Below, in pieces: positions 17,911-21,468 of a stretch of 64,000 nt of DNA. A program made the position numbers and the translations under genes. The DNA is from Desulfuromonadaceae bacterium. GTDB taxonomy: Bacteria > Desulfobacterota > Desulfuromonadia > Desulfuromonadales > JAHYIW01. The first letter of the stretch is position 1, and the number at the start of each line of letters is the position of its first letter. The notes below the pieces were generated by a model. That model worked only from the letters and a program-made list of their open reading frames with translations, had not been told where the DNA came from and made no database searches. The DNA lies in contig JAHYIW010000017.1 in the NCBI GenBank assembly GCA_019429445.1, forward strand, positions 1 through 64,000, read 5' to 3'.

Positions 17911-18585
17911 ATGAAATACAATCTTTTCGATCTGGGGGCGGGGCTGCTGGTTGGGCTGTTGTTGCTGCTGGTACTGAAAGGGGCATTTGAATTGCCGCCG
18001 CCCGCGCCGACTGGCCCGCCGGTCCCGCCGCTGAGCGCAGAGCCAACTGTAGAGCCGACCGTAGAGCCGACCGTAGAGCCGAGGCACGTTATCCCCTCCT
18101 CCGCAGCACCGTCGGCATTGATCAAAAACGCCCGGTTGCTGATCCGCAAGAAGGAGCGTCGTCTCGACCTCTTCGCCGGAGACGATTTGGTAAAAAGTTG
18201 TGCCATTGGCCTGGGGTTTGAGCCGACTGGCGATAAAAGAGAGCGCGGCGACGGGCGCACTCCGGAAGGGGTGTTTTACGTCTTCACGAAAAATCCCCAA
18301 AGTTCCTATTACCTGTCCCTGGGGATCAGTTATCCCGGCGGTGAAGATGCCGGGCGCGGTTTGGTGGCTGGTTTGATCGATTTCGATGAGTACGATGCCA
18401 TTATCAAGGCGCAACACGAACGCCGTCCACCACCGATGAACACCAGACTTGGCGGGGAGATCTATATCCACGGGCACGGCAGTGGCAGCGACTGGACGCT
18501 CGGTTGTATCGCCCTCAATGATGACGATGTGCGGGAGCTGTTCGAAAAAGTTCCGCTCGGTGCGGAAGTGGTGATCGAACCTTAG
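17911..18585 (+). CDS. L,D-transpeptidase (YkuD domain), membrane-anchored
   Basis: 224 residues from ATG (a GTG lies four codons upstream). A short N-terminus and one hydrophobic helix (FDLGAGLLVGLLLLLVL) lead into a proline-rich linker containing a perfect-to-near 12-bp tandem repeat at 18040-18075 that codes EPTV three times. The YkuD domain follows, with GEIYIHGHG and the TLGCIALND catalytic cysteine motif. Such enzymes make 3-3 cross-links in peptidoglycan or attach proteins to it; members with a short GFEPTGDKRERGDGRTPEG segment resemble the ErfK/YafK group. Convergent with the SDR gene downstream. Confidence 0.85.
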   Translation: MKYNLFDLGAGLLVGLLLLLVLKGAFELPPPAPTGPPVPPLSAEPTVEPTVEPTVEPRHVIPSSAAPSALIKNARLLIRKKERRLDLFAGDDLVKSCAIGLGFEPTGDKRERGDGRTPEGVFYVFTKNPQSSYYLSLGISYPGGEDAGRGLVAGLIDFDEYDAIIKAQHERRPPPMNTRLGGEIYIHGHGSGSDWTLGCIALNDDDVRELFEKVPLGAEVVIEP

Positions 18586-19540: not shown

Positions 19541-19579
19541 GTTCATATTGTCAATGCAGTCAACACGGTCAATGAAGTC
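19541..19579 (+). repeat. 9-bp-period GTC array, left flank of the four-helix-bundle gene
   Basis: GTC occurs at 19550, 19559, 19568 and 19577, each exactly 9 bases apart, with GTT at 19541 in phase. The units read GTCAATGCA, GTCAACACG, GTCAATGAA. The array lies just past the stop codon of the minus-strand gene at 19598-20350 and resembles the array on the other side of that gene. Confidence 0.75.
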
Positions 19580-19597
19580 TCCAGACTCTGCGTTGTT

Positions 19598-20350
19598 CTA
19601 TATCGCCTTCGTTCCCTTGCAGTCAGGGAAGGCGGAGCAGCCCCAGAAATCGCCTTTTGCCGACTTACGCTGTCGCATGGGCTTGCCGCACTGCGGGCAC
19701 TTTGGTGATGGCCCGTTTTTTTGGTTTTCGCGCGCCGCTATGCGCTTGGTCATCAGCCGCTCGCTGAAACCGCCGGTTTCTTCAAAAGTTTTGCCTTGTG
19801 CTTCGATCTGACTCTTGAGCATGTTCAGTGCCCGTCCGATGATGATGAGCATGGCGTTGGCTACCACCACCGCGTCGTCGACATCGAGCCAGCGGGCGTA
19901 TTTCCGGCGTTGTTCCAGAGCGTGCCGGGCCGATTCGTGGACCATGTTATCCTTGAAGGGCGCGTCATCGAGAGAGATGGCATTGATGGCTCTGGCCTCA
20001 GGATCATGAACCGACCACGGGAGCTGCCCGCGGTCGAGGATGAATATCTCGTAGTCGCCGCGCAGCTCGCTGAGACTCGCCCGCGCAACGTCGGTGAGCT
20101 TCATCTCGGTGTCCTTCGAGGTCGAGGAGCGTTCCGAGCCTTCGATGATATTTTGCCGACCACTGCGCGCGGCCTGAGTCATCTGGTCGTATTGCCGTCC
20201 CTTGGGATCGTAGAACCTGGTGTCCGCCTTGCGGTAGTCGAAGGTCAGAAAACGGCGGCAGAAGCGCAGTGTGTCGAGCTGCACGATTGTCGCCAGCGTG
20301 AAGGTGTGCAGCCGACGGAATCCTCCGTGTTTGTCAAACAGTTCAGGCAT
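19598..20350 (-). CDS. Four-helix-bundle (S23/IVP-like) protein with C4 zinc ribbon
   Basis: 250 residues; an AAGGAG site lies 6 bases before the ATG. The N-terminal ~190 residues match the family annotated as four-helix-bundle suffix domain proteins: a GGFRRLHTFTLATIVQ opening, the conserved QMTQAARSGRQNIIEGSE segment and KLTDVARASLSELRGDYE. The C-terminal ~40 residues form a zinc ribbon of the topoisomerase type, CPQCGKPM with a second pair in WGCSAFPDCKG. Related S23 proteins were first seen in rRNA intervening sequences; a related Avd protein works with reverse transcriptases in diversity-generating retroelements, but no reverse transcriptase is present here. The gene is bracketed by 9-bp-period GTC arrays. 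A nucleic-acid-binding role is likely; the biological job is unknown. Confidence 0.8.
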   Translation of the reverse strand: MPELFDKHGGFRRLHTFTLATIVQLDTLRFCRRFLTFDYRKADTRFYDPKGRQYDQMTQAARSGRQNIIEGSERSSTSKDTEMKLTDVARASLSELRGDYEIFILDRGQLPWSVHDPEARAINAISLDDAPFKDNMVHESARHALEQRRKYARWLDVDDAVVVANAMLIIIGRALNMLKSQIEAQGKTFEETGGFSERLMTKRIAARENQKNGPSPKCPQCGKPMRQRKSAKGDFWGCSAFPDCKGTKAI

Positions 20351-20370
20351 GCCGTGCTCCTTGTGCCGGG

Positions 20371-20427
20371 GACCGCATAGACCGCACTGACACCATTGTC
20401 AATCCGGTCATTCGAGTCAATAAAGTA
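20371..20427. repeat. 9-bp-period GAC/GTC array, right flank of the four-helix-bundle gene
   Basis: On the plus strand GAC is at 20371, 20380 and 20389, then GTC at 20398, 20407 and 20416, then GTA at 20425, all exactly 9 bases apart. Because GAC is the complement of GTC, the array is symmetrical about ~20394. It lies 9 bases beyond the ribosome site of the gene, so it falls in the 5' leader or promoter. On the minus strand it contains TTGACT and TTGACA, which could serve as -35 boxes. Autoregulation is a reasonable guess. Confidence 0.8.
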
Positions 20428-20574: not shown

Positions 20575-20742
20575 CGTCAAATTATCCTCTGATCATCAAT
20601 TGCATCACATCCCCCCCCCACCGGAAACAGAATTTAACGGAGTTTAATCCACCGCGTCTGTTCATTCAAGCTGAAACTGCCCTGGTGACTGAATAATTGC
20701 GAAGCTTTGTTGCGGGGGAGGTGTTTTTGTGACGAATTGAAA

Positions 20743-21468
20743 ATGATGACGATCAATATCAACCCGTCAGCCTCCTGCAAATGCAACGATAACTTCAGCT
20801 TTGGTCTCGGTTTTAGCGCTCAGTATCTCGATGTGACGCTGTCTCAAAAATCTGTTCTCGCTCCTGGAGTCTCTTCTTTTACTGAAACGACTGGTGACTC
20901 CTGGGGATATGGTTGTAATTTTGGTGCCTTGTATGAATTTAATGACAATACCCGTATTGGGGCTTCTTACCGTTCAAGTGTTTTCCATTCCCTTAAAGGA
21001 GATATGGCTATTCGTCGCACTGGCACTTCAGTACCTGTGACCGCTAAAATCAAGCTACCCGCCAGTGCTCAGGCGAGTGTTTTTCATCCTATCAATAGCA
21101 AGGTTGACGTGATGGCTGATGTGATGTGGACCGATTGGAGCGTTTTTGAGGATTTGACTGTCAACACGCCTGCAGGCCAAAATGTTACGGATGAAAACTG
21201 GAAAGACAATATGCGCTACTCGCTCGGCGGGACTTATCACCACAGCGATGTACTCGCCTTTCGCGCCGGTGTCGCTTACGATGAAACACCGATTCCCGAT
21301 GCGACCCGTACGCCGCGTATTCCCGGAGCGGACCGAACCTGGGTTGCGTTCGGTAGTGGCTATAAAACGGGGAACTGGAGCTTTGAGGCATTTGAGCCAG
21401 GTTTTTCTGCCCCCGACGGTTTTTGTCGGGGGCTTTTTTTTCTTGGTGGGTGGGGTGGGGTGTGGTAA
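20743..21468 (+). pseudogene. FadL/OmpP1-type outer-membrane transporter, truncated at both ends
   Basis: From about NPSASCKCNDNFSFGLGFSAQ to SGYKTGNWSFEAF the reading matches the middle and late part of FadL-family beta-barrels, including GASYRSSVFH, KLPASAQASVFH, WTDWSVFEDL, NWKDNMRYSLGGTY and the strong signature YDETPIPDATRTPRIPGADR. The N-terminal ~150 residues with signal peptide and hatch are missing, and so are the last strands. The frame then runs directly into a transcription terminator hairpin and reads through it. The protein could not insert as a normal barrel, so I call it a remnant of a hydrophobic-compound transporter gene. It is not close to any fatty-acid gene. Confidence 0.8.
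21409..21442 (+). terminator. Rho-independent terminator of the former fadL gene
   Basis: GCCCCCGAC and GTCGGGGGC form a 9-bp perfect stem with a T-rich loop, followed by eight T. It now lies inside the truncated fadL reading frame, which shows that the end of that gene has been deleted up to its terminator. Confidence 0.9.

What the first reader, a model, noticed from the sequence alone, without database searches (positions are those of the whole stretch)
19541..20427. Four-helix-bundle/zinc-ribbon gene bracketed by exact 9-bp-period GTC arrays
The sequence shows GTC at 19550, 19559, 19568 and 19577 on one side of the gene, and GAC at 20371, 20380, 20389 then GTC at 20398, 20407, 20416 on the other, all exactly 9 bp apart. 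Unit bodies are similar (GTCAATGCA, GTCAATGAA, GTCAATCCG, GTCAATAAA). The 20371-20427 array is also nearly a palindrome because GAC is the complement of GTC, and lies just upstream of the ribosome site. The encoded protein is of the S23/four-helix type (relatives include rRNA intervening-sequence proteins and the Avd subunit of diversity-generating retroelements) with a C4 zinc ribbon. Known fact: S23 proteins are widespread but without an agreed job. Inference: the protein binds these arrays, controls itself, and the whole unit may move as a cassette with the repeats as its borders.
Basis: partly seen in the sequence, partly recalled or inferred. Interest (0 to 1): 0.82.

Follow-up and report, generated by a model that had tools for sequence, protein, structure and literature searches.

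The report
Likely mobile gene with 9-bp arrays
A small gene of unknown function sits between two sets of DNA signals repeated every 9 letters; its relatives in many bacterial groups carry the same kind of signals, with a spacing that goes with the protein family, and some of those relatives have visibly moved into plasmids together with their repeats.

Summary
The arrays are real and not chance: GTC x4 at 9-bp steps from 19550, and mirrored GAC x3/GTC x3 at 20371-20418. The gene (19598-20350, minus strand) belongs to NCBIfam TIGR04258 (four-helix-bundle suffix) and has a C4 zinc ribbon. In 80 relatives from many phyla, GAC/GTC runs occur at step 9 in 56 of 80 loci, at other steps in 0-5 of 80, and at step 9 in 12 of 141 distant segments. 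Neighbouring arms are inverted (GAC arm first 32, reverse 2). Ordinary S23 genes (TIGR02436) show period 7 instead: 55 of 69 loci, none with 9. So spacing goes with protein subfamily. Period-7 S23 cousins on cyanobacterial plasmids have filled and empty alleles; the heptamer arrays arrive with the gene as its ends (inserts 423, 503, 418 bp; 5-bp duplication clear at 2 of 6 sites). Best reading: a 9-bp branch of a large class of minimal S23 mobile cassettes whose protein recognises the arrays. Binding, the DNA-cutting enzyme and mobility of the window's copy are inferred; no empty site was found for the 9-bp branch.

The parts
19598..20350 (-). S23-like four-helix-bundle suffix protein with C-terminal C4 zinc ribbon, 250 aa
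   Evidence: TIGR04258 54.4 bits (cut-off 40), Zn_ribbon_Top1 46.4 bits (cut-off 32). AlphaFold2 mean pLDDT 84.9; second-look alignment to S23 protein Xcc0516, 2gsc, Z 14.7
19730..19870 (-). suffix domain (TIGR04258), residues 161-207
19607..19702 (-). C4 zinc ribbon, residues 217-248
19541..19586 (-). array 3' of the gene: TTGACNNNA-type units, GAC x4 at 9-bp steps on the gene strand (GTC at 19550, 19559, 19568, 19577 on +)
20371..20426 (-). mirrored array 5' of the gene: on the gene strand a GAC x3 arm, then a GTC x3 arm, all at 9-bp steps
20351..20362 (-). ribosome-binding stretch (AAGGAG on the gene strand) between array and start codon
   Evidence: sequence, by eye

Best explanation
The gene and its two arrays are one cassette, a 9-bp branch of a large, so far unrecognised class of minimal mobile cassettes that encode only an S23-fold four-helix-bundle protein and carry inverted arrays of short-period units at their ends (7 bp for S23 proper, 9 bp for the suffix family). 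The protein, probably as an oligomer, reads the arrays (GAC plus about four flanking bases, two positions skipped) and uses them as the element's ends and perhaps as its own operator. Arrays without the gene are ORF-less relatives. Shown: the arrays, their link to the family, inverted polarity, a period that goes with protein subfamily, arrays that move with period-7 cousins. Inferred: binding, oligomer, the enzyme that cuts DNA (the protein itself or a host factor), and mobility of this copy.
For: Step-9 runs in 56 of 80 homologous loci against 12 of 141 distant segments (p 1e-21) and 0-5 of 80 at other steps. Mean period-9 score 21.5 near 80 genes, 9.6 in 147 control segments; of periods 4-20 only 9 and 18 are raised. 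Arm order GAC-then-GTC 32 against 2. Unit positions 4 and 5 vary freely, 6-8 are conserved within arrays (identity 0.33, 0.29 against 0.69, 0.74, 0.59). S23 genes show period 7 in 55 of 69 loci, 8 in 7, 9 in none; suffix flanks show 9 in 35 of 80 and 7 in 1. Period 7 seen in three S23 sets: the order, other phyla, plasmids. S23 arms: purine arm first upstream 42 against 10, pyrimidine arm last downstream 46 against 9. Unit type goes with protein clade, by eye. Filled and empty sites of period-7 cassettes: inserts 423, 503, 418 bp with arrays at both ends; GTAAT and TTCTA duplicated at sites 1 and 4; three further sites with less clear ends. ORF-less inverted array at the same site in Brasilonema, and another inside an S23 gene. 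In 136 genomes GGACx4 arrays occur in 14 of 27 with TIGR04258 and 11 of 109 without; in at least 11 of those 14 a listed array lies within 1 kb of the gene (counted by hand). The Coxiella rRNA intervening sequence carries heptameric repeats before its S23 gene (PMC4990558, passages).
Against: No empty site for any 9-bp cassette; the pair L029/L047 first looked moved but lies in one shared neighbourhood. The window's unit has no copy elsewhere in its genome or in G104, and its 3' array has one clear arm, so its outer ends are not a simple inverted pair. 24 of 80 suffix loci have no GAC/GTC run; by the general score only 19 of 80 exceed the 99th percentile of controls. One S23 locus, L173, also has a strong period-9 stretch beside its period-7 one (52.9 and 127.6). 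Some arrays lie inside genes. G026 has 11 array hits without a TIGR04258 match. The GGACx4 pattern read backwards also hits many of the 136 genomes, up to 47 times in one. No known nuclease or transposase domain in the protein. Target duplication is clear at 2 of 6 sites; at sites 2, 5 and 6 the flanks differ too much. Clade-specific units could come from shared descent alone.
Confidence: 0.6

Rival explanations
1. Autoregulation only: the arrays are operators (iterons) bound by the S23-like protein to control its own gene; the unit is a resident gene, not mobile.
For: In the window one array lies just upstream of the ribosome-binding stretch; arrays stay with the gene even when inside it; unit type goes with protein clade.
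Against: Arrays also lie downstream of the gene in 39 of 80 loci, and solo arrays lie at places without such a gene; period-7 cousins have empty sites without arrays.
Confidence: 0.2
2. RNA-level element like an rRNA intervening sequence: the arms pair as an RNA stem that is processed or bound by the protein, with DNA sequence secondary.
For: Inverted arms; the Coxiella rRNA intervening sequence has terminal inverted repeats forming a 28-bp stem, is cut by RNase III in vitro, and has heptamers before the S23 gene (PMC4990558, passages). Overall match of facing units slightly above shuffles (336 of 666, mean 319.6, fraction 0.039).
Against: The free positions 4 and 5 of facing units do not match beyond chance: 0.36 and 0.26 in hairpin register, null 0.31 and 0.29, sd 0.035 and 0.034.
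Confidence: 0.1
3. A host-serving DNA organiser: dispersed arrays are chromosome sites and S23-like proteins are their binders, domesticated from a selfish ancestor.
For: Solo arrays at gene borders; one intergenic site carries arrays in two species with about 85% identical flanks but different units.
Against: Patchy presence: 27 of 136 genomes of the order; filled/empty polymorphism of cousins.
Confidence: 0.07
4. Chance or coding periodicity.
For: Steps 6, 9 and 12 all give runs of three in the window.
Against: Markov controls, distant controls and the other periods.
Confidence: 0.01

Closest known systems
23S rRNA intervening sequences with an S23 ORF (Coxiella; Leptospira recalled)
   Same: S23 ORF between terminal inverted repeats, called a selfish element; Coxiella has two or three GACAGAT heptamers plus a degenerate one before the ORF (PMC4990558, passages); length 428 nt, near the 418-503 bp inserts measured here
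   Different: The window cassette lies between protein genes, has 9-bp units, a suffix domain and a zinc ribbon; no known rRNA excision
TIGR02436 'four helix bundle protein' (S23) genes with heptamer arrays
   Same: Same fold (2gsc Z 14.7, 2rld Z 12.8), short-period arrays on both sides, mostly inverted
   Different: Period 7, not 9; no suffix domain; the window protein scores just under or at that family's cut-off; separate branch of a quick tree, support 99
REP elements and RAYT transposases
   Same: Palindromic dispersed repeats, a mother gene flanked by them, solo copies in intergenic regions (concept recalled)
   Different: No Y1/HUH domain found in the protein; ends are arrays of 7/9-bp units
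Avd of diversity-generating retroelements
   Same: Four-helix bundle (8ub8 Z 11.1, 4dwl Z 10.9; level with unrelated helical bundles)
   Different: No reverse transcriptase among the six proteins scanned
Dispersed heptamer repeats: TAACTGA, GGGAATC, STRR (last one recalled)
   Same: Short-period intergenic arrays of unexplained function; PMC6344855 (passages) calls heptamers the most abundant intergenic ones, with no clear clue to function
   Different: Period 7; the words S23 and four-helix do not occur in those papers (find)

Membership tests
TIGR04258 four helix bundle suffix family | profile score over curated cut-off | tested here: met
   54.4 bits against 40
S23 / TIGR02436 | profile score over curated cut-off | tested here: inconclusive
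   22.9 against 24 for the protein; 24.0 and counted over the cut-off in the genome scan
S23 / PF05635 | profile score over curated cut-off | tested here: not met
   22.3 against 33.8
S23 / TIGR02436 | four-helix-bundle fold | tested here: met
   2gsc Z 14.7, rmsd 2.1, 115 aligned; Foldseek alone not significant, 2rld E 0.22; sequence profile against PDB 2gsc E 0.2
rRNA intervening sequence | location inside a 23S rRNA gene | tested here: not met
   neighbours are a short-chain dehydrogenase and a FadL-type fragment; no rRNA search was run
rRNA intervening sequence | RNase III excision of the transcript | not testable with these tools
   -
S23-type mobile cassette (defined here) | short-period arrays on both sides of the gene | tested here: met
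   period 9
S23-type mobile cassette (defined here) | inverted arms at the ends | tested here: inconclusive
   5' array mirrored; 3' array has one clear arm
S23-type mobile cassette (defined here) | filled and empty sites | tested here: inconclusive
   met for period-7 cousins; for the window both genomes held of the genus are filled
REP/RAYT | Y1 HUH transposase domain | tested here: not met
   not among Pfam matches of the protein up to E 0.1
Diversity-generating retroelement | reverse transcriptase next to an Avd-like gene | tested here: inconclusive
   six proteins around the gene scanned, none is an RT; the rest of the window was not scanned

The most novel reading that the evidence does not exclude
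S23-fold proteins are the sole encoded mobility factor of a very large class of minimal transposons (about 0.4-0.9 kb) whose ends are inverted arrays of short units with a pitch dictated by the protein (7, 8 or 9 bp). rRNA intervening sequences, S23 genes, and the dispersed heptamer arrays of cyanobacteria, xanthomonads and others would then be one phenomenon, and a 110-250 aa four-helix bundle would be either a new kind of recombinase or an adaptor that recruits a host enzyme.
Probability: 0.4. Interest if true: 0.95.

Novelty: categorically new. Interest (0 to 1): 0.88.

Why it matters
S23 proteins are widespread without an agreed function, and heptamer arrays were reported as the most abundant intergenic tandem repeats in a wide range of prokaryotes with no clear clue to function (PMC6344855, passages). 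The link found here ties the two together and makes both testable: each S23-like protein predicts the spacing of its own array. If the protein alone moves these cassettes, it would be a new and very small mobility protein.

Tried and rejected
Rejected: chance; an RNA stem as main constraint; L029/L047 as a moved 9-bp cassette (withdrawn); L012/L041 as clean boundaries (both lie by type I restriction genes, as I read the translations, and the ends are rearranged). Led nowhere: in viral contigs 63 stretches matched a pattern, none was a relative; phages had no match; plasmids had one suffix relative, Prevotella, with no other record of its site. G104 lacks an 8.2-kb stretch that holds two S23 genes in own contig C5, which is not a single-gene insertion (L279 was fetched but not analysed). 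A gene-junction comparison L217/L222 was uninformative. Avd is listed at Z about 11, level with unrelated bundles. Paper searches for a link of S23 to these arrays; of what they listed I opened five papers, and of those only the Coxiella paper ties heptamers to an S23 gene. The library holds no preprints and lacks most subscription papers.

Rows dropped or shared: one search skipped 3 of 72 S23 loci, and two rows of the order set without a readable N-terminus; the Fisher test on periods used only rows called 7 or 9 (55 of 69 S23, 36 of 80 suffix). One search looks at flanks only, so in-gene arrays count as none (42 of 80 suffix, 18 of 40 in the order). The suffix set of the order and the set of 80 share at least three loci, judged by equal contig lengths (L015/L087, L036/L090, L019/L122). 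Of 29 plasmid records with S23 12 were fetched. At site 1 (48 records) one empty record was fetched and aligned, with one remnant and one ORF-less record; five further rows are judged empty from the listing only. 'Empty' means that no array was seen when I read the alignment.

Full report
Observation. The 64-kb window holds one run of four GTC/GAC at 9-bp steps and one mirrored 3+3 array; 200 first-order Markov sequences gave means of 0.005 and 0. A general period scan finds one period-9 segment scoring 18 or more, 20371-20426. Runs of three are not special by themselves, since steps 6 and 12 also give them.

The gene. 19598-20350 on the minus strand encodes 250 aa: TIGR04258 four-helix-bundle suffix family (54.4 bits, cut-off 40) with a C4 zinc ribbon; S23 profiles score below or at their cut-offs. 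AlphaFold2 gives a helical bundle and a two-stranded C-terminal part (pLDDT 84.9). In a second look at Foldseek's candidates the best are S23 proteins 2gsc (Z 14.7) and 2rld (12.8), then Avd chains at about 11, level with unrelated bundles; Foldseek alone gave nothing significant. The genome has three such genes. The orthologue in the only other genome held of the genus lies in the same place with the same arrays.

Relatives. The family occurs in 27 of 136 genomes of the order. In gene plus 300 bp each side, of periods 4 to 20 only 9 and its double 18 are raised: mean 21.5 in 80 loci against 9.6 in 147 distant segments of the same contigs; 19 of 80 exceed the 99th percentile of the controls. 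Runs of three or more GAC/GTC at step 9 occur in 56 of 80 loci (upstream 44, downstream 39, inside 5); other steps give 0 to 5 of 80; distant segments 12 of 141. Neighbouring arms are GAC first, GTC second in 32 cases and reversed in 2; 112 of 127 arms hold three or four units.

The unit. Taking GAC as start (this core is fixed by the way runs were found), position 4 is uniform over the four bases, position 5 less strictly so, and positions 6-8 are conserved within an array. Facing units of the two arms do not match at positions 4-5 beyond chance, so an RNA stem is not the main constraint; neighbouring units are no more alike there than distant ones. Unit type differs by protein clade, by eye: GGAC..AAA or CAA, GGAC..ATA/ATG, GGAC..GGT, GACnnGTCn, GGGA.T.AT, and TTGACNNNA in the window. 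Shared descent alone could give this. Since 9 bp is three codons, arrays also lie in frame inside some genes, as tripeptide repeats near the N-terminus, in the linker or at the C-terminus.

Subfamily and period. S23 genes without the suffix (TIGR02436) were meant as a control and gave the main surprise: period 7 and its double 14. In the order, mean period-7 score 36.3 in 30 loci, other periods except 14 between 6.7 and 10.3; one locus, L173, also has a strong period-9 stretch. In 30 loci of other phyla the mean is 22.8 (median 19.2) against 8.9 (95th percentile 23.7) in 59 distant segments; in 12 plasmid loci, 11 of them cyanobacterial, 44.9 (median 28.7) against 11.7 (95th percentile 29.2) in 24. 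By flanks, 55 of 69 S23 loci are period 7, seven period 8, one each 6, 10 and 11, four none, and none period 9; suffix loci are period 9 in 35 of 80 and 18 of 40 (order), period 7 in 1 and 1, none in 42 and 18. On a quick tree the two groups are split by one branch (support 99, few columns). S23 genes mostly have the purine arm first upstream and the pyrimidine arm last downstream (42 against 10; 46 against 9).

Movement. On cyanobacterial plasmids six S23 sites were compared with alleles lacking the gene. Site 1: Trichormus filled, Fremyella empty at about 98% identity; insert 423 bp, GTAAT on both sides. At the same site Nostoc C052 has a remnant and Brasilonema an ORF-less inverted array. 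Site 3: insert 503 bp, duplication unclear. Site 4: insert 418 bp, TTCTA on both sides; in one plasmid the S23 gene is itself interrupted by an ORF-less inverted array of the same type. Sites 2, 5 and 6 show presence and absence, but flanks differ too much to call the ends. At the empty sites I saw no array, so arrays come with the gene. The annotated inserts hold no gene but the S23 one.

Solo arrays. GGACx4 arrays occur in 14 of 27 gene-positive and 11 of 109 gene-negative genomes of the order. By eye, most of the negative ones are perfect repeats that could be coding, and the pattern read backwards also hits many genomes; but G026 has dispersed palindromes without the gene. In G044 the listed solo arrays are mostly of the CA(G/A) type of its own gene's array. 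At one intergenic site G041 and G044 carry arrays of different type between about 85% identical flanks. The window's own unit has no solo copies.

Prior work. The Coxiella rRNA intervening sequence has GACAGAT heptamers before its S23 gene and is called a selfish element (PMC4990558, abstract and passages). TAACTGA heptamers (PMC4679880, abstract and a word search), GGGAATC heptamers (PMC4692102, passages) and the SPADE survey (PMC6344855, passages) report dispersed heptamers; the words S23 and four-helix do not occur in them. PMC6749651 was seen by passages only. No paper found joins the two (searches listed under tried and rejected).

Verdict. For the window's 9-bp branch, mobility and binding are inferred from cousins. 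I rate it categorically new because I know of no described system with short-period arrays as the ends of an element that encodes only a four-helix bundle; the rRNA intervening sequence looks like one member already glimpsed.

Noticed in passing
window 20707-21468: FadL/TodX-type fragment matching only profile positions 128-369 of 421: looks like a broken gene next to the cassette.
   Followed up: no
L258, L262, L264: S23 genes sit inside CRISPR-Cas operons of cyanobacterial plasmids: between cas6 and cas4 (Anabaena 90, Pseudanabaena) and between cas10 and a cmr3-type gene (Picosynechococcus).
   Followed up: no
L029:1078-1239 and L047:3725-3828: Other dispersed repeats in genus g32: about 160 bp in nearly 40 listed places of G095 and about 105 bp in about 20 of G094.
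   Followed up: no
L269:3466-3526: About 61 bp in G000 absent from G104, next to a different GC-rich hairpin.
   Followed up: no
L206-L213 (G026): Dispersed palindromic 9-bp arrays in a genome without a TIGR04258 match, some with GAC arm first and some with GTC arm first.
   Followed up: partly
L191, L196, L227, L230, L256, L264, L267: S23 loci with period 8 instead of 7, in several groups (L191 and L196 from one genus); L248 has 11 and L249 has 10.
   Followed up: partly
L226:4640-4720: The Prevotella suffix gene has a palindromic array with a 9-bp step and a CCTAG-type unit downstream, read by eye.
   Followed up: no
window 18039-18082: 12-bp tandem repeat in an L,D-transpeptidase gene.
   Followed up: no
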